Origin: Myxococcota bacterium
GTDB taxonomy: Bacteria > Myxococcota_A > Bradymonadia > UBA7976 > UBA1532
Assembly (NCBI GenBank): GCA_963169045.1
Contig: CAUJDF010000079.1
Coordinates: 1-64,000 of the forward strand
Direction of reading: 5' to 3'
Length of the DNA: 64,000 bases
Shown here: positions 10,111 to 64,000 of the stretch, in pieces
How positions within the stretch are numbered: the stretch's first letter is position 1
Layout of the letters: each line of letters begins with the position of its first letter
Translations under genes and position numbers: made by a program
The notes under the pieces: generated by a model
Database searches by the model: none
What the model was told of the DNA's origin: nothing
The model's input: only the letters and a program-made list of their open reading frames with translations

Positions 10111-11703
10111 ATGACGAGCGAGAGGTCGCGGCGCGTCTTTCTTCTGCCCTTGGCGGGCATCCTGTTGCTCGCCGCATCGCCCCTGCTGCCGAGGGTCGCA
10201 CGCCACCCGATGATCGTCGGCACCGTGCTCGCCGCCGCCGCGCTGCTCGGCGTGTGGACGGCAGTGCTGTATGCCCGGGCGCGCCGCGGCGTCGAGTACC
10301 GCCTCGACGTGGTCCTGCGGAAGAACCACTACCTGCAGCTCGTCGTGCAGCTCGTCCTGTTCGCCTACTGGTGGATGTACTGGCCGAAGGGCACCGACCA
10401 GATCGCGCTCATCCTCGTCCAGCTCGTGTTCGCCTACGTGCTCGACATGCTGCTGCTCTGGTCGAAGCACCGCGAGTGGCGCGCCGGCTTCAGCGTCGTG
10501 CCGCCGGTGCTGAGCGTGAACCTCTTCCTCTGGTTCCACGACGAGTACTTCCCCTTGCAGTTCGCGGTGATCGCGCTGGCGTTCGTCACCAAGGCGCTCG
10601 TCCACTGGAAGCGCGAGGGGCGCTCGACCCACATCTTCAACCCGTCGGGCATCGCGCTGTGGGTCCCCGCGGTCATCATGATCGCCGGCGGCTGGTGGGG
10701 CGTCGCGCGCGCGAACGAGATCTCGTCGACGCTCGGCGCGCCGCCCTACATCTACGAAGCCATGGCGATCGCATCGCTGCTCGTCCAGTTCTACTACCCG
10801 GTCATCCTGATCACGATGTCGGCGGCGCTGACGGTCGTCGCGGCGGGCTTCGTCTACACGACCGTGACCGGCGTCTATCTGTTCATCGACACGTCCATTC
10901 CCATCGCCGTCTTCCTGGGGATGCTGCTGCTGATCACCGACCCCTCCACGTCGCCGCGGTCGTGGCCGGGCCGCGTGCTCTTCGGCGTGCTGTACGGCCT
11001 GAGCATCGCGGGCTGCTACATCGCGCTGCGCGAGACGGGGCGCCCGTCCTACTTCGACAAGCTGCTCTTCGTGCCGGTGCTGAACCTGGCGGTGCCGGCC
11101 ATCGAGCGTTGGGGACGGCGCGTGGAGCTCGCCATCGGCCGGGCGCGCTTCAGCGTGCGCGAGGCGAACACGGCGCACCTCGCCGTCTGGATCGGCGTGT
11201 TCGCCGTCATGCTGCCGTGGCTCAAGGCCCACGCCGGACGCAGTCCCGAGTACTGGCAGCGCGCGTGCGCCGAGGGTCGCCACGGCGCGTGCAACAGCCT
11301 CGCGGCGCTCTACGGTGATGCCTGCGAGCGCGGCGTGGGTGAGGCCTGCCACAATCTGGGTGCCATGTTCGAGGGCGGCGAGGCCGGGCCCGCCGATCCC
11401 GCGCGCGCGCTGGTGGCCTACGAGCGCGGCTGTCGCGAGGGCGCGGCGGCGTCCTGCGACCGCGCGGGCACCATGCACGGCCTCGGCGAAGGCGTGCCGC
11501 GCAACGAGCCCCGCGCCGCGGTGTTCTATGGCAACGCCTGCACCGCGGGCGAGCCCGCCGGATGCCACAACCTCGGCGTCGCCTTCGAGAACGGGCTCGG
11601 CGTCCTGCGCGACACGGCGCAGGCGCTCTCGTTCTACGATCGCGCGTGCCACGCCGGCTTCGGTCCGGCCTGCGAGAACGGCCGCCGCCTGCGCATGCGG
11701 TGA
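10111..11703 (+). CDS. RnfD/UnbU-like multipass membrane protein fused to Sel1-like repeats
   Basis: 530 residues. Residues about 1-360 are a multi-pass membrane domain with the segment STHIFNPSGIAL, which resembles the core of NqrB/RnfD and UnbU-type proteins. The Thr that carries covalent FMN in RnfD/NqrB is not present (PSGIAL), so flavinylation by the usual route is doubtful. From about residue 385 to the end there are repeated Sel1-like units with paired Cys (ACxxGxxxACxxL...), three or four copies, likely exposed outside the membrane. The start follows GAGG. The fusion suggests a membrane protein with a protein-binding tail. No Rnf or Nqr partners are nearby, so it is probably not part of a classical ion-pumping complex. 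Confidence 0.8.
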   Translation: MTSERSRRVFLLPLAGILLLAASPLLPRVARHPMIVGTVLAAAALLGVWTAVLYARARRGVEYRLDVVLRKNHYLQLVVQLVLFAYWWMYWPKGTDQIALILVQLVFAYVLDMLLLWSKHREWRAGFSVVPPVLSVNLFLWFHDEYFPLQFAVIALAFVTKALVHWKREGRSTHIFNPSGIALWVPAVIMIAGGWWGVARANEISSTLGAPPYIYEAMAIASLLVQFYYPVILITMSAALTVVAAGFVYTTVTGVYLFIDTSIPIAVFLGMLLLITDPSTSPRSWPGRVLFGVLYGLSIAGCYIALRETGRPSYFDKLLFVPVLNLAVPAIERWGRRVELAIGRARFSVREANTAHLAVWIGVFAVMLPWLKAHAGRSPEYWQRACAEGRHGACNSLAALYGDACERGVGEACHNLGAMFEGGEAGPADPARALVAYERGCREGAAASCDRAGTMHGLGEGVPRNEPRAAVFYGNACTAGEPAGCHNLGVAFENGLGVLRDTAQALSFYDRACHAGFGPACENGRRLRMR

Positions 11704-11713
11704 GATCGGCCGG

Positions 11714-12166
11714 TCAGGCCCGCGGGATGCGCGCCTCGCGCTCGCGGCGCATCGCCGCCGCCCGCTCGCCGAGCGACGCGGCGTCCGCGTCGGGGACCGC
11801 GCGCGAGGCGAGGTCGAACAGCTCGAACTCCATGAGGGCGAGGTGCTGCCGCAATCGCGACGAGAACGCCTCGATCGCGACCTTCGCCTTGGGTTCCGCG
11901 AGGTCATGGAGCGCCGCGAACCGCTCCATGACCTCGGTAGCCTCGCGACGCCGGACCGCGGCGGCCTCGCGCGTCTCGGGCAGGACGCCGAGCAGCGGGT
12001 GGAGCAGCTCCTCTTCGATGCGCCGCTTCGTGTCGAGATCGGCGGCGAGGACGGCCAGCAAGCGCTCCCGCTCGACGGGCCGCGTGGCGCTCGTGTGCTC
12101 GAGCAGGTTGAGGGTGCGCAGCAGGTGCGCGTATTCGGCGCCCAGCGCCTCGTAGATGGTGGGCAT
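11714..12166 (-). CDS. Hemerythrin-like (HHE) fold protein with lost iron ligands
   Basis: 150 residues matching the layout of HHE hemerythrin-domain proteins: MPTIYEALGAEYAHLLRTL, then RIEEELLHPLL, then RQHLALMEFELFDLA. In the family the first segment reads like QDHRKV, the second HARIEEEVFYP and the last HxxxEExxLFP. Here the first His is replaced by Tyr (with a His two residues later), the second-helix His by Lys, and the EHK helix by REA. Only the last His and Glu are kept. It may therefore bind no di-iron centre and act as a structural or regulatory relic. It converges on the membrane-Sel1 gene. Confidence 0.7.
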   Translation of the reverse strand: MPTIYEALGAEYAHLLRTLNLLEHTSATRPVERERLLAVLAADLDTKRRIEEELLHPLLGVLPETREAAAVRRREATEVMERFAALHDLAEPKAKVAIEAFSSRLRQHLALMEFELFDLASRAVPDADAASLGERAAAMRREREARIPRA

Positions 12167-12234
12167 GTCGGTCGTCCGCTCCGGTCGGTTGCCGCCTCGA
12201 AGGGCGATGCCTCACGGCGCGGGGGGGTCGCTAC

Positions 12235-12264
12235 TTGCGGCAGGGGTCCCGGTGGGGCCATCCT
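12235..12264 (+). promoter_or_regulatory. Sigma-70-like promoter for a leaderless FIST gene
   Basis: TTGCGG (12235-12240), an 18-base spacer, CATCCT (12259-12264), seven bases, then ATG at 12272. There is no Shine-Dalgarno sequence before this ATG. The same geometry recurs at several genes in the window. Confidence 0.45.
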
Positions 12265-12271
12265 GTCTCCC

Positions 12272-13468
12272 ATGAAGGTGGCGAGCGGATCCAGCGCGGC
12301 GGCCGACGCGGAGGGGGCGGTCGGCGAGGCTTACGACCGCGTCCTGTCGGGGCTCGGCCGCGCCCCCGACCTGCTGCTCGTCGGCGCCACGAGTCGCTAC
12401 GACGCGACGCGCATCGTCGCGGCGCTCGCGGCGCGGGCGCCCGGCGTGCCGGTGCACGGCAGCTCGAGCTGTCTCGGCGTGATGAGCGACGACGGCTTCG
12501 TCTCCGACTGGGGCGCCGGCCTGGCGATGCTCGGCCTCTCCGACCCCGACGGCGCGTACGGCGTCGGCGCGGTGCCGATCGGCGACGACCCGCGGGCGGC
12601 GGCGGTGGCGGCGGCCCGACAGGCGCTCGAGCGCGCGGGGCGCCCCGGCGAGGTGCCCGGCCTCGTGCTGCTGGCCGCGCAGCCCGGCCACGAGGAGCGC
12701 CTCCTCGAGGGCCTCGAAGGCTGGTTCGGCCCGAACGTGGTCATCGCCGGCGGCTCGTCGGCCGACGAGATGACCGCGGCCAACTCGTACCAGCTGGCCA
12801 ACGACGCGGCGCTGCGGGACTCCGTCGTGGTGACGGCGCTGTTCCCGTCGGGCGAGGTGATGTCGTCGTTCCACTCGGGATACGAGCCTTCGGGGCACCG
12901 CGGCGTGGTCACGAAGGCGTGCGGCCGCACCATCCTCGAGATCGACGGCCGCCCGTGCGGCGACGTCTACGACGACTGGGCCGACGGCGTCTTCACGCAT
13001 TGGGTCAAGGAGGGCGGACCGCTGGCGCTCATGCGCGTCACGCTCCACCCGTTCGGCCGCGTCGTCGGTAACGCCGGCGGCGCGCCGTACTACGTGCTGT
13101 CGCACGCCCAGGGCGTCACCCCCGGGAAGGGCGTCACCTTCCTCACCGAGTTCGCCGAGGGCGACGTCGTCGAGCTGCTCCGCGGCACGCGCGACGGCCT
13201 GGCGATGCGGGCGGGACGGGTCATCCAGTCGGCGCTCGAGACCGCCTCGGCGTCGATCGACGAGGTCGCCGGCGCGCTGGTCGTCTACTGCGCCGGCTGC
13301 ATGCTCACGATGTACGACCGCATGCCCGAGATCGCGGCGAGCGTGCGCGCGGCCCTCGGCGGCCGCCCGTTCCTCGGCGTGTTCTCGTTCGGCGAGCAGG
13401 GGTGCTTCGTCGGCGGCGAGAACCGGCACGGCAACCTGATGATCTGCGCCACGCTGTTCGGCGCCTGA
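12272..13468 (+). CDS. FIST-domain sensory protein (FIST N + FIST C)
   Basis: 398 residues of the FIST family, predicted small-ligand sensors. The N-terminal part has the family pattern PDLLLVGATSRYD...VPVHGSSSCLGVMS, followed by VVIAGGSSADEM. The C-terminal part has GCMLTMYDRMPEIAASV and PFLGVFSFGEQG. The protein is soluble with no signal peptide. It is followed six bases later by a kinase with a sensory N-terminus. FIST proteins are often encoded beside signalling kinases or cyclases and are thought to pass a ligand signal to them, so this pair is probably a sensor-kinase unit. The start is fixed by family alignment and by the leaderless promoter geometry. Confidence 0.9.
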   Translation: MKVASGSSAAADAEGAVGEAYDRVLSGLGRAPDLLLVGATSRYDATRIVAALAARAPGVPVHGSSSCLGVMSDDGFVSDWGAGLAMLGLSDPDGAYGVGAVPIGDDPRAAAVAAARQALERAGRPGEVPGLVLLAAQPGHEERLLEGLEGWFGPNVVIAGGSSADEMTAANSYQLANDAALRDSVVVTALFPSGEVMSSFHSGYEPSGHRGVVTKACGRTILEIDGRPCGDVYDDWADGVFTHWVKEGGPLALMRVTLHPFGRVVGNAGGAPYYVLSHAQGVTPGKGVTFLTEFAEGDVVELLRGTRDGLAMRAGRVIQSALETASASIDEVAGALVVYCAGCMLTMYDRMPEIAASVRAALGGRPFLGVFSFGEQGCFVGGENRHGNLMICATLFGA

Positions 13469-60483: not shown

Positions 60484-61113
60484 ATGACGGATCCCATCGC
60501 GCGGATGCGGACCGGGCCCGCGGCGAGCGGGAAGAAGGGCGGTGGCGGCCTGGGCGTGGGTCTCGCGACGGCCCTCGTCGTCGGCGCCGGCGCTGGCTAC
60601 TACCGATACTCGGAGAAGCAGGACGAGAAGGACGGGAAACGCGGCGCGATCGTCTCCGCGTGCTTCGAGAGGCTCGTCGAGCGGCGCGGCTTCGAGGAGT
60701 CCGCCTACCGAGAAGCGGCACGCAAGTTCAGGAAACACGGCGACACCTACGTGAACTGCGTGGCGCTCGAGACGTGCAGCCGCACGCCCCAGGAGCCGGT
60801 CTCCTACTTCTTCGAGCTTCTGAAGGGCCGCAACGCCTGCCTCCGCGACGAGTACCGGTATCGCGCCCGCAACAAGACCGGCCTGCCCGCGCGCGACGAG
60901 CCCGCCCCGAGCGTCGATCCGGCGCTGCTCGGCGACTTCTACCCGTGCTTCGCCGAGCTCTCGGAGCGGGAGCGGGAGGTCCTGCTCGTGAGCGTCGGGA
61001 AGGGCGACGACGTCTCGTACGCGCGCAAGTGGGACGTGAAGCTCGCCACGGTCCGGCAGGACCGCGGGCGGGCGGCTCGCAAACTCAAGAAATGCATGGA
61101 CGCGGACGACTGA
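60484..61113 (+). CDS. Membrane-anchored protein with sigma-region-4-like C-terminus
   Basis: 209 residues. One transmembrane helix near the N-terminus (GGLGVGLATALVVGAGAGYY, about residues 21-40) preceded by KKGG, so the bulk probably faces the cytoplasm or periplasm depending on topology. A middle segment with four Cys (ACFERL, NCVALETC, NACLRDE) has no recognised fold. The C-terminal ~55 residues, FAELSEREREVLLVSVGKGD and onward to VKLATVRQDRGRAARKLKKC, look like sigma-70 region 4 / a LuxR-like helix-turn-helix. No region 2 is seen. It lies 103 bases upstream of the kinase-helicase gene on the same strand. GGGGGGAAGG precedes the ATG. Confidence 0.65.
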   Translation: MTDPIARMRTGPAASGKKGGGGLGVGLATALVVGAGAGYYRYSEKQDEKDGKRGAIVSACFERLVERRGFEESAYREAARKFRKHGDTYVNCVALETCSRTPQEPVSYFFELLKGRNACLRDEYRYRARNKTGLPARDEPAPSVDPALLGDFYPCFAELSEREREVLLVSVGKGDDVSYARKWDVKLATVRQDRGRAARKLKKCMDADD

Positions 61114-61138
61114 TCGCGCCTCCTCGAGAAAAACGCAC

Positions 61139-61152
61139 GTCACGTGTCACGT
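61139..61152 (+). repeat. Tandem heptamer GTCACGT x2
   Basis: Two perfect adjacent GTCACGT copies (61139-61145, 61146-61152), containing the palindrome CACGTG, about 65 bases before the kinase-helicase start. Could be an operator. Confidence 0.35.
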
Positions 61153-61178
61153 TTCGCCCGCCCACGGCTGGAACCTCC

Positions 61179-61201
61179 GAGCCGCGCACTCTCCGCGGCT
61201 C
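61179..61201 (+). promoter_or_regulatory. Leader hairpin before the kinase-helicase ribosome site
   Basis: GAGCCGCG (61179-61186) and CGCGGCTC (61194-61201) form a perfect 8-base-pair stem with a 7-base loop, ending a few bases before AAAGGAGG and the ATG at 61217. It may stabilise the leader or modulate translation. Confidence 0.4.
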
Positions 61202-61216
61202 CGAAAGGAGGTCCCC

Positions 61217-64000
61217 ATGTCGTCGCCATTGCCCCGGACGCTGGATCGCGGCCGCTACGAGATCGTGAGCCGCCTCGGCGAGGGGTCGTCATCCCAGGTG
61301 TACGTCGTCCACGACCGCACCGACGATCGCCGGTACGCTGCCAAGATCCTCGACACGGTCGGTCCTCAGCGAGACATCGCGCGCGCCATGTTCCAGCGCG
61401 AGCAGGCGGCGCTCGACGGCTTCGAACACCCCGCAGTCGTCCGCCTCGAGCGCTGGTTCGGCGACGAGGACCGGCTCGTGCTCATCCTCGAGTTGGTCTC
61501 CGACGGCCGCACGCTCACCGACGTCCTCGACGACGTCGCCGCCCGGCGCCGCGACCGGCCCGCGGTGCAGTGGCGCGTCGCGCAGGCGCTGGCGCTCGTC
61601 GAGGCGCTGCTGGCGGCGCACGCCCGCAACGTCATCCACCGCGACATCAAGCCGGGCAACCTGCTGTTCAGCCGCGGCGAGGAGACGCTGAAGCTGGCCG
61701 ACTTCGGCATCGCGCTCGTGCTCGAGATCGCCGCCGCCGCTCCCGCGGGCACGACCCTGCGCGAGTTCCACACCCTGCCGTACGCGCCGCCGGAGCAGCT
61801 GCTGCAGCAGGACGTGTCGTTCCCCGCCGACGTCCACGCGCTCGGCCTCGTCCTCGCCTGCCTCTTCGCGCTGACGCTGCCCGACGACGACTTCCGCGCC
61901 ACGGGCGTCGAGGCGCTGCTCGACGCGGCGGCGCCCGACTTCGAGGCCGCCGGCTGTCTCCCGGAGGACTGGCGCCCGCTGCGTGACGTCCTCGTCCGAT
62001 GCCTCGCGACGGACCCCCGCGCGCGACCGCGCCTGCAAGAGCTGCAGCCGCTCCTCCGCGCGGTGGCCGACCGCGTGGCGCCGCCGGTGACCGCCTGCCT
62101 CGCCTTCACCCGGGCCGCGCGGGACAAGCTGCGTGCCGCCGGCTTCGCCGACGAGGCCGAGCTGCTGGCGGACCTGAACGACGGCCTGCGGGTCGGCATC
62201 ATGGACGACGCCACGTCGGCCACGCCCCGGATCGAGTGCCTCGGCAGGCATGCCTTCGTCGTGGTCGTGGCGGACCGCACGGACGCGCCGCTCACCGTGA
62301 TCGACGCCGGCCGCGGCAAGGCGCTCGGCCACGACACGGCCCGGCGGCGCTCGGCTCCGTGCCGCATCGTGCTCCGCGAGGGGCGGGGCGACGCCGGCGC
62401 CCTGGTCCGGTTCGCCGAAGAGACCGTCAGTATCGTCCACTCCGCCGAGACGGCGCAGCTCCTCGAGACGGCAGAGCAGGTCGTGAAGCTGGAGCTCGAG
62501 CGACTGGCGAAGCTGCGGGTGCACTATGTGCTGCACGACGGAGAGAGCGACGCCCGGTCGTCCGACATCGATCGCGCCCGCGCCGCTGGGCTCACCGCCA
62601 CCTGGGACGACTGCGTCACGCTGAAGGGCACGGTCAGGCTCGAGGTCGGGCGCGTCGTCCCGTGGTCCCCGCCGCGCAACAAGCCCACGGTCCGCCAGTC
62701 CGTCGACGCGCAGCTCGGCACGCGGACGGCAGCCTTCGACGACGCCGACGCGATGCAGCCGCTCGAGGGCTGGCACGAGCTCTACGAGGACCCGACCAAG
62801 GTGACGGTCGGCCTGCCGACGGCGAACGATCGCATCGAGGAGATCGGCAGCTTCGCCTGGTTCGACGAGGCGACCGGCGAGCTCACTATCGAGCTCCGCA
62901 AGAAGACGCGGCTGCCGCGTATCGGCGCGCTGCAGCTCCGCGACAAGCAGGCGGAGGTCGTCCTCAAGCGGCAGCGGGACGCCCTGAACAAGCTGCGCAC
63001 CGGCGAGACCGTGCGCCGCGACCTGCCGCTCCTGCTGGCGAGGACGGGCGCGCATCGGATGGGCGAGCGTGTGCTCTGCTCTCCGCTGCAGCCGGAGCTC
63101 GCCCGGTCGCCACAGGTCGCAGATCTGGTCGAACGCATCCTCGCGGCGGAGGGCATCTTCACGCTCCAGGGGCCACCCGGGACCGGCAAGACGACGCTGA
63201 TCACCGAGGTGGTCGCCCAGGCGTTGATGCTGCACCCGGAGTGGCGCATCGGCGTCGTCGCCCAGGCCAACGAGGCCGTGGCCAATGTCTTCGAACGCCT
63301 GCGCGACACACGCGCGGCGCTCAGCGCGCCCTGGATGCTGTGCCGCGACGTCCGCGACGAGCTCGCGAAGGAGGAGAACGAGGCGGAGCGGCGGCGCCTG
63401 GCGGCGCGCGGATCGATCGCGCCCGAGGACTCGCAGGTGTCCGGCCGCCGGCATGCTTTCCGGGCCTTCGCGCAGCGGACGGCCGCGGCCTCGGAGCGCG
63501 CGGAGCGCGCGCACGCGGACCTGCCCCCCGGTGCCGCGGCGGCCCTGGCGCAGTGGCGCGAAGCGCTGCGGGCGGGCGCCCGGGGCACGCAGCGCGAGTT
63601 CGCCGAGCTCGTCCAGGTGTGGGGCGTCACGCTCGTCCGATCGGCGGGCGTGCTCGCCAACCTCGAACGCCAGGAGCTCGATCTCCTGGTGGTCGACGAG
63701 GCCGCGAAGGCCTCCGTCGCCGAGACGCTCGTGCCGATGGTCGCCTCGCGGCGCTTCCTGCTCGTGGGCGACCACAAGCAGCTCCCGCCCTACCTCGACA
63801 CGCTGACGAGCGACCAGCTCCGGCAGCTGCAGCGCGATCCCGCGCGGGCCCGATTCTCACTCTTCGAGCACCTGCGGGCCATCGTGCCCCGGGAGTCGCG
63901 CGACATGCTGCGGACTCAGTTCCGGATGCACCGCTCCATCGGCGACTTCGTCAGTCAGCTCTTCTACGCCGAGGAGGGCGGCGTGCGCACCGGCGTGGCC
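61217..64000 (+). CDS. Ser/Thr kinase - SF1 (COG1112) helicase fusion, partial
   Basis: The frame stays open for 928 codons to the window end, so the C-terminus is missing. Kinase: LGEGSSSQV (20-28), Lys43, HRDIKPGN (141-148), DFG (162-165 region), PEQLL; it looks active. Residues about 290-640 are unassigned. The helicase part has Walker A GPPGTGKTT (652-660), Walker B VDEAAKAS (826-833, DEAA), GDHKQLPP (851-858) and QFRMHRSIGDFVSQLFY, the Upf1/DNA2-like AAA_11/AAA_12 set. Kinase plus COG1112 helicase is the architecture of MkoA from the Mokosh type I anti-phage system, whose second gene encodes a PLD nuclease; that would lie beyond this window. AAAGGAGG precedes the ATG. Confidence 0.9.
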   Translation, partial: MSSPLPRTLDRGRYEIVSRLGEGSSSQVYVVHDRTDDRRYAAKILDTVGPQRDIARAMFQREQAALDGFEHPAVVRLERWFGDEDRLVLILELVSDGRTLTDVLDDVAARRRDRPAVQWRVAQALALVEALLAAHARNVIHRDIKPGNLLFSRGEETLKLADFGIALVLEIAAAAPAGTTLREFHTLPYAPPEQLLQQDVSFPADVHALGLVLACLFALTLPDDDFRATGVEALLDAAAPDFEAAGCLPEDWRPLRDVLVRCLATDPRARPRLQELQPLLRAVADRVAPPVTACLAFTRAARDKLRAAGFADEAELLADLNDGLRVGIMDDATSATPRIECLGRHAFVVVVADRTDAPLTVIDAGRGKALGHDTARRRSAPCRIVLREGRGDAGALVRFAEETVSIVHSAETAQLLETAEQVVKLELERLAKLRVHYVLHDGESDARSSDIDRARAAGLTATWDDCVTLKGTVRLEVGRVVPWSPPRNKPTVRQSVDAQLGTRTAAFDDADAMQPLEGWHELYEDPTKVTVGLPTANDRIEEIGSFAWFDEATGELTIELRKKTRLPRIGALQLRDKQAEVVLKRQRDALNKLRTGETVRRDLPLLLARTGAHRMGERVLCSPLQPELARSPQVADLVERILAAEGIFTLQGPPGTGKTTLITEVVAQALMLHPEWRIGVVAQANEAVANVFERLRDTRAALSAPWMLCRDVRDELAKEENEAERRRLAARGSIAPEDSQVSGRRHAFRAFAQRTAAASERAERAHADLPPGAAAALAQWREALRAGARGTQREFAELVQVWGVTLVRSAGVLANLERQELDLLVVDEAAKASVAETLVPMVASRRFLLVGDHKQLPPYLDTLTSDQLRQLQRDPARARFSLFEHLRAIVPRESRDMLRTQFRMHRSIGDFVSQLFYAEEGGVRTGVA

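What the first reader, a model, noticed from the sequence alone, without database searches (positions are those of the whole stretch)
60484..64000. Kinase-helicase fusion resembling Mokosh type I MkoA, preceded by a membrane sigma-4-like protein
The sequence shows a complete Ser/Thr kinase (Lys43, HRDIKPGN, DFG) fused to an Upf1/DNA2-type SF1 helicase (GPPGTGKTT, DEAA, GDHKQLPP, QFRMHRS). From established knowledge, a kinase plus COG1112 helicase with a PLD-nuclease partner defines the Mokosh type I anti-phage system. The upstream gene, with a transmembrane helix and a region-4-like tail, is not part of the described system and may be a new accessory, and a tandem heptamer plus a leader hairpin suggest tight control. 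That the two genes form one system is inference.
Basis: partly seen in the sequence, partly recalled or inferred. Interest (0 to 1): 0.75.

Follow-up and report, generated by a model that had tools for sequence, protein, structure and literature searches.

The report
Mokosh-like kinase-helicase without its nuclease
A soil-type bacterium carries a two-gene relative of the known anti-phage system Mokosh in which the nuclease half of the second gene is gone while the protein kinase of the first is intact, so if it is a defence it must act by some route other than that nuclease.

Summary
Window 61217-64000 starts a 1098-aa gene (B) that ends at contig position 64513. It fuses an intact Ser/Thr kinase to an SF1 (COG1112/Upf1-type) helicase, and PADLOC calls it MkoA over its full length (E=3.5e-149).

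The predicted PLD nuclease is absent. The next gene (C, 64513-65274, 253 aa, overlapping B's stop by one base) matches only the N-terminal third of MkoB (profile 6-228 of 610), with no HxKxxxxD motif, and a convergent gene follows 11 bp later. Short PLD-less partners also follow MkoA in two other genomes, so this is a lineage form and not a broken gene.

In the helicase tree B falls with a Mokosh branch that keeps an active kinase: cyanobacterial members have a one-HKD MkoB, rhizobial members an MkoB without HKD plus a PP2C phosphatase. It does not fall with the E. coli-type branch: 17 of 17 sampled there have a two-HKD nuclease and a pseudokinase.

The upstream gene A is not a conserved part: one relative in 237 genomes, with no kinase-helicase beside it. 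Its sigma-4 and membrane calls are sub-threshold.

Verdict: a divergent, nuclease-less variant of Mokosh I. Anti-phage activity and kinase-based action are inferred, not shown.

The parts
61217..64000 (+). Gene B, 1098 aa: MkoA-like kinase-helicase fusion. It continues past the window end to contig C79 position 64513.
   Evidence: PADLOC MkoA PDLC03920 E=3.5e-149; strong Shine-Dalgarno AAAGGAGGT before ATG
61238..62068 (+). Ser/Thr kinase domain, residues 8-284 of B, catalytic residues intact (K43, E62, HRDIKPGN, DFG, PPE, D205)
   Evidence: Pfam Pkinase E=2.9e-36; alignment with relatives
62069..63112 (+). Middle region, residues 285-632 of B, no recognised domain; weak similarity to Mokosh models only
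   Evidence: PADLOC MkoA E=0.0013; hhalign to active-kinase branch E=1.1e-5 over 60 columns next to the helicase
63113..64000 (+). SF1 Upf1/DNA2-type (COG1112) helicase domain, residues 633-1082 of B (continues to contig position 64462)
   Evidence: Pfam AAA_11, AAA_12; PADLOC MkoA 331.7 bits for this part alone; tree
63999..64000 (+). Place-holder for gene C, which lies wholly beyond the window at contig C79:64513-65274 (+): 253 aa, short MkoB with an N-terminal winged-helix-like region and no PLD nuclease domain; starts in the TGATG overlap with B's stop
   Evidence: PADLOC MkoB PDLC03922 E=1.1e-9, profile 6-228 of 610; no HxKxxxxD; hhalign E=4e-10 to MkoB of the active-kinase branch
61114..61216 (+). 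Leader between A and B with predicted hairpins that pair the Shine-Dalgarno of B; tandem heptamer at 61139-61152
   Evidence: fold z=-2.7; heptamer not above chance
60484..61113 (+). Gene A, 209 aa, marginal N-terminal TM helix, six cysteines, region-4-like tail; same strand, 103 bp before B; not shown to belong to the system

Best explanation
Genes B and C form a two-gene operon that is a divergent member of the Mokosh type I family: the end of a branch in which the MkoB nuclease has been lost while the MkoA kinase stays intact. Proposed working: the Upf1-type helicase, with the winged-helix protein C as its adaptor, engages phage or otherwise abnormal nucleic acid. This releases or activates the fused Ser/Thr kinase, which phosphorylates host or phage proteins and stops infection or growth, instead of (or upstream of) nucleic acid cleavage by a PLD enzyme. 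Shown by sequence: the domain architecture, intact catalytic motifs, the B-C overlap, the absent PLD domain, the same short partner in two other genomes, and the branch placement. Inferred: anti-phage function, nucleic acid sensing, kinase activity, and the kinase as the output.
For: PADLOC MkoA full length E=3.5e-149 and MkoB N-terminus E=1.1e-9 in adjacent, overlapping genes. Short PLD-less partner directly after MkoA in G226 (244 aa) and in JADLAB010000027 (251-265 aa, itself MkoB at 9.4e-11), each about 30% identical to C, so probably kept under selection. The MkoA of these genomes is one clade (95/87), joined with a Deinococcus MkoA whose partner also lacks HKD (100/99), inside a branch (90/93) with cyanobacterial and rhizobial active-kinase Mokosh loci. 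In that branch the rhizobial MkoB has no HKD and no Pfam PLD hit, and a PP2C phosphatase gene overlaps it in 3 of 3 loci, which fits functional kinase signalling. Kinase intact in all three readable clade members. This MkoA form is rare and scattered (3 of 284 genomes of the phylum), and relatives lie on conjugative plasmids or beside an integrase in E. coli, as defence genes do.
Against: The locus is not in a recognisable defence island: neighbours are lipoproteins, an epimerase, ArsA-type ATPases and a tRNA synthetase. The Deinococcus sister has both a degenerate kinase and a degenerate nuclease, so the kinase cannot be the output everywhere. The middle region shows almost no similarity to Mokosh. 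No phosphatase or kinase substrate was found at this locus. All relatives of the PLD-less form are draft metagenome assemblies; in one the kinase part and in another the MkoB part is off the contig.
Confidence: 0.55

Rival explanations
1. Mokosh-like defence whose nuclease acts in trans: a PLD or other nuclease encoded elsewhere in the genome is recruited by C.
For: The genome has other stretches that match the PLD part of the MkoB profile, on contigs 70, 4, 53, 75, 29 and 90.
Against: Those hits are weak (E 1e-8 to 6e-3) and of the kind many control genomes also give (the profile rings in 11 of 14); none was seen beside a helicase of this kind. Two other genomes show the same short partner without a neighbouring PLD gene.
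Confidence: 0.12
2. Not a defence system: a kinase-regulated RNA/DNA helicase with a housekeeping or stress role in this lineage.
For: No defence island around it; GC and GC3 not far from the genome (72.8% / 93.4% against 74.6% for the window and 97-98% GC3 for housekeeping genes); these genomes are rich in Ser/Thr kinases.
Against: Absent from 12 of 12 sampled members of the same family and from most of the class; Mokosh models fit best; the nearest relatives outside the phylum are on plasmids.
Confidence: 0.18
3. A-B-C is one three-gene system with A as a membrane component or membrane effector.
For: A lies 103 bp upstream on the same strand; G226 has membrane-helix proteins on both sides of its MkoA-MkoB pair.
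Against: A is not upstream at G226 or G127; the one homologue of A lies next to a type I restriction locus without a kinase-helicase; the A-B gap carries its own leader, unlike the B-C overlap.
Confidence: 0.08
4. Complete, ordinary Mokosh type I with a PLD nuclease.
For: Full-length MkoA match.
Against: The partner gene lacks the PLD half, and the following gene is convergent.
Confidence: 0.02
5. Decaying Mokosh that lost its nuclease and is no longer functional.
For: Loss of the catalytic nuclease half.
Against: All kinase and helicase motifs intact; B and C open with strong Shine-Dalgarno and translational overlap; the same short form recurs at about 30% identity in separate genomes.
Confidence: 0.05

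Closest known systems
Mokosh type I, E. coli-type branch (MkoA + two-HKD MkoB; E. coli G3/10, rhizobial plasmids, five genomes of the same phylum)
   Same: Kinase-like domain fused to a COG1112 helicase; downstream overlapping partner with an N-terminal winged-helix-like region
   Different: There MkoB is about 580-1100 aa with two HKD motifs and the kinase domain is a pseudokinase (HRD replaced by HG/HRN/HRH, DFG by GFE/RFE) in 17 of 17; here the kinase is intact and the PLD part is gone
Mokosh type I, active-kinase branch (cyanobacterial plasmids: kinase-helicase + one-HKD MkoB)
   Same: Intact kinase; same helicase branch (90/93); partner N-terminus homologous to C (hhalign E=4e-10)
   Different: Cyanobacterial MkoB (475-511 aa) keeps a PLD domain with one HKD; C (253 aa) ends before it
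Rhizobial kinase-helicase + HKD-less MkoB + PP2C phosphatase loci (S. medicae, Microvirga, A. fabrum plasmids)
   Same: Intact-looking kinase, MkoB without nuclease motif
   Different: They keep a degenerate PLD-like C-terminus and have a phosphatase gene; neither is present here
Mokosh type II (MkoC)
   Same: COG1112 helicase
   Different: Single gene with helicase and PLD nuclease, no kinase
Stk2 / PD-T4-6 / KKP kinase-based phage defences
   Same: Ser/Thr kinase as the proposed output
   Different: No helicase fusion or MkoB-like partner known to me; resemblance of mechanism only

Membership tests
Mokosh type I | COG1112 (Upf1-type SF1) RNA helicase in MkoA | tested here: met
   Pfam AAA_11/AAA_12; PADLOC MkoA E=3.5e-149; tree
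Mokosh type I | Ser/Thr kinase domain in MkoA | tested here: met
   Pkinase E=2.9e-36 with all catalytic residues; note that the E. coli-type members have only a pseudokinase
Mokosh type I | PLD-family nuclease encoded by a separate adjacent gene (MkoB) | tested here: not met
   Adjacent gene C covers MkoB profile 6-228 of 610 only, no HKD, no Pfam PLD hit; next gene convergent. Definition as stated in PMC11672841
Mokosh type I | MkoB N-terminal (winged-helix-like) region in the downstream gene | tested here: met
   PADLOC E=1.1e-9; hhalign E=4e-10 to active-kinase branch and 2.6e-5 to two-HKD branch
Mokosh type I | Anti-phage activity | not testable with these tools
   Needs expression and phage challenge
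Mokosh type II | Helicase and PLD nuclease in one protein | tested here: not met
   Gene B ends after the helicase, no PLD hit
Housekeeping IGHMBP2/Upf1-type helicase (TIGR00376) | Score above family cut-off, no kinase fusion | tested here: not met
   194.5 bits against cut-off 348.9; kinase fused at N-terminus
Sigma-70 family (gene A) | Region 4 above curated cut-off | tested here: not met
   12-13 bits against 24-26
Conserved accessory of kinase-helicase loci (gene A) | Co-occurrence with kinase-helicase genes in other genomes | tested here: not met
   One homologue in 237 genomes, not beside a kinase-helicase; other genes upstream at G226 and G127

The most novel reading that the evidence does not exclude
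Within Mokosh the output changed from nucleic acid cleavage to protein phosphorylation: the helicase-winged-helix pair is the sensor, and in this branch the active kinase (with a PP2C off-switch in rhizobia) is the weapon, with the nuclease first losing its active site and finally the whole domain. B-C would be the nuclease-free end state.
Probability: 0.33. Interest if true: 0.72.

Novelty: new variant of a known kind. Interest (0 to 1): 0.52.

Why it matters
Mokosh is defined by its PLD nuclease, and its kinase has no explained role. Natural loci that keep the kinase and drop the nuclease, beside E. coli-type loci that keep the nuclease and have lost the kinase's catalytic residues, offer a ready natural experiment on what each half does. 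Profile-based defence finders that demand a full MkoB are likely to miss such loci (inference).

Tried and rejected
(1) A strict rule that an active kinase excludes a nuclease, first suggested by 3 against 15 and later 17 loci, was dropped when cyanobacterial loci with both an active kinase and a one-HKD MkoB turned up, and a Deinococcus locus with neither.
(2) Viral-contig scans with gene B, its alignments and gene A gave no MkoA relative, only unrelated prophage kinases.
(3) Structure prediction of the short MkoB from JADLAB without an alignment was worthless (pLDDT 33), so no fold search was made.
(4) The tandem heptamer was tested and is not above chance.
(5) The long MkoA model PDLC03921 was searched in the phylum and found nowhere, so the kinase of that subtype is untested.
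(6) Gene C had no PDB, Pfam, NCBIfam or PHROG match.
(7) hhalign of the middle region against E. coli-type MkoA was negative, so homology over that stretch is not claimed.
Full report
What is there. The window is the first 64 kb of a 195-kb contig of a 9.0-Mb draft genome; the window is 74.6% GC. The sequence past the window end was read directly. Gene B runs 61217-64513: 1098 aa, an intact Ser/Thr kinase, a middle region without a recognised domain, and an SF1 helicase of the Upf1/DNA2 (COG1112) type. Gene C (64513-65274, 253 aa) starts inside B's stop codon (TGATG). The next gene is convergent and ends 11 bp after C. Gene A lies 103 bp upstream of B on the same strand.

Identity of B and C. 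PADLOC's MkoA model matches B over its whole length (E=3.5e-149). The MkoB model matches C at E=1.1e-9, but only positions 6-228 of 610. Split into parts, the support comes from the kinase (133 bits) and the helicase (332 bits), with almost none from the middle (15 bits). NCBIfam's IGHMBP2-family helicase model scores 194 bits, below its cut-off of 349. C has no HxKxxxxD motif and no Pfam PLD match.

Is the missing nuclease an accident? Probably not. Among 284 genomes of the phylum only G000, G226 and G127 have a close B homologue, and a scan of about 85,000 species added one more, a contig titled Polyangiaceae bacterium isolate SJ101. In G226 and in that contig the gene after MkoA is again about 250 aa, about 30% identical to C, an MkoB N-terminus, and PLD-less. 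In G226 the next gene (589 aa, TM helix plus FGE-sulfatase-like domain) overlaps it by 4 bp. In G127 the contig ends inside MkoA.

Comparison with other Mokosh loci. In the same phylum, five MkoA of 617-791 bits all have a PLD partner with two HKD motifs. The same holds for ten rhizobial-type plasmid loci, one prophage-like contig and an E. coli locus beside ssrA and an integrase gene. In all 17 the kinase domain lacks the catalytic Asp of HRD and the Asp of DFG: it is a pseudokinase. Pfam's kinase model is not found at all (E below 0.01) in the E. coli protein. Mokosh I is described in the literature as carrying a serine-threonine kinase domain (PMC11672841).

A second branch. A search with B in plasmids found kinase-helicase proteins with intact kinases. 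Five cyanobacterial loci have an MkoB of 475-511 aa with one HKD. Three rhizobial loci have a 490-505-aa MkoB with no HKD (no Pfam PLD hit in the two scanned), followed by a PP2C phosphatase gene. A Deinococcus locus has a degenerate kinase and a partner without HKD. In the helicase tree B's clade (95/87) joins the Deinococcus protein (100/99), and both lie with the cyanobacterial and rhizobial active-kinase proteins (90/93), apart from the E. coli-type branch (100/99). C's profile matches the MkoB N-terminus of the active-kinase branch at E=4e-10 and that of the E. coli-type branch at 2.6e-5. The root is not known, so the direction of change (nuclease lost or gained) is inferred from the degenerate rhizobial and Deinococcus forms. 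The kinase tree puts B's kinases nearer to ordinary bacterial kinases than to the pseudokinases; a replacement of the kinase domain cannot be excluded.

State of the two catalytic halves in the sample: two HKD with pseudokinase 17 of 17; one HKD with active kinase 5 of 5; no HKD (PLD degenerate) with active kinase 3 and with pseudokinase 1; PLD absent with active kinase 2 of 2 readable. Each class is one or a few clades, so this is a handful of evolutionary events and not dozens of independent data points.

How it most likely works. The shared core of all these loci is the helicase plus the winged-helix partner, so that pair is the likely sensor (inference). Where the nuclease is gone, the intact kinase is the only enzyme left besides the helicase, and in rhizobia a phosphatase is added, as expected if phosphorylation needs a brake (inference). 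Kinase-driven phage defence has precedent in Stk2 (reviewed in PMC12926258) and in the KKP module (PMC11341870, abstract). The Deinococcus case, with neither catalytic half, warns that the helicase may suffice or that another effector exists.

Gene A. The single homologue among 237 genomes (31-33% identity, G038) keeps the basic N-terminus, a hydrophobic stretch, the region-4-like tail and all six cysteines. Conserved cysteines and a positive N-terminus would fit an exported domain, while the tail would fit a cytoplasmic one; the topology is open. That homologue is a lone gene beside an HsdR-type restriction locus, with no kinase-helicase. A is therefore not a demonstrated part of the B-C system.

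Leader. The predicted fold of 61114-61219 pairs CCUCC with the AGGAGG of B (z=-2.7). Translational control is possible but untested; the heptamer repeat is within chance.

Verdict. The sequence observation is right and the family assignment is right in descent. The defining nuclease is missing, and the accessory claim for A fails. It is a new variant of a known kind, moderately interesting because the loss and retention of the two catalytic halves make the role of the Mokosh kinase testable.

Noticed in passing
L138:6385-10335 (-) (G127:C61): A 1316-aa protein fuses an intact Ser/Thr kinase, a PD-(D/E)XK/Dna2-like nuclease and a COG1112 helicase in one chain, a different kinase-nuclease-helicase architecture in a genome that also holds a relative of gene B.
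   Followed up: partly
L144:3915-9653, L147:3930-9731, L150:2957-8650: Rhizobial plasmid operons: active-kinase MkoA, MkoB whose HKD motif is gone, and a PP2C phosphatase gene overlapping it; possibly a kinase-phosphatase form of Mokosh.
   Followed up: partly
L111-L120, L124, L141 and G152, G241, G213, G171, G103: The kinase domain of all 17 sampled E. coli-type MkoA proteins is a pseudokinase, although Mokosh I is described as having a serine-threonine kinase domain.
   Followed up: yes
L123:5113-5793 (G038:C35): Lone homologue of gene A with the same six cysteines and region-4-like tail, convergent with a YgjP-type hydrolase and HsdR-type restriction gene.
   Followed up: partly
L016:4382-6151 (-) and 10209-13304 (-): In G226 the kinase-helicase/short-MkoB pair is flanked by two proteins with a membrane helix, one with an FGE-sulfatase-like domain overlapping the short MkoB by 4 bp; possible partners.
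   Followed up: no
L125:7325-9290 and L126:7563-12699: Viral contigs with COG1112 helicases beside winged-helix-like proteins, one with a PLD-like half and one without, and no kinase: the helicase plus winged-helix pair seems to be a wider module (by eye).
   Followed up: no
window 61114-61219: Predicted hairpin in the leader of gene B that pairs its Shine-Dalgarno sequence.
   Followed up: partly
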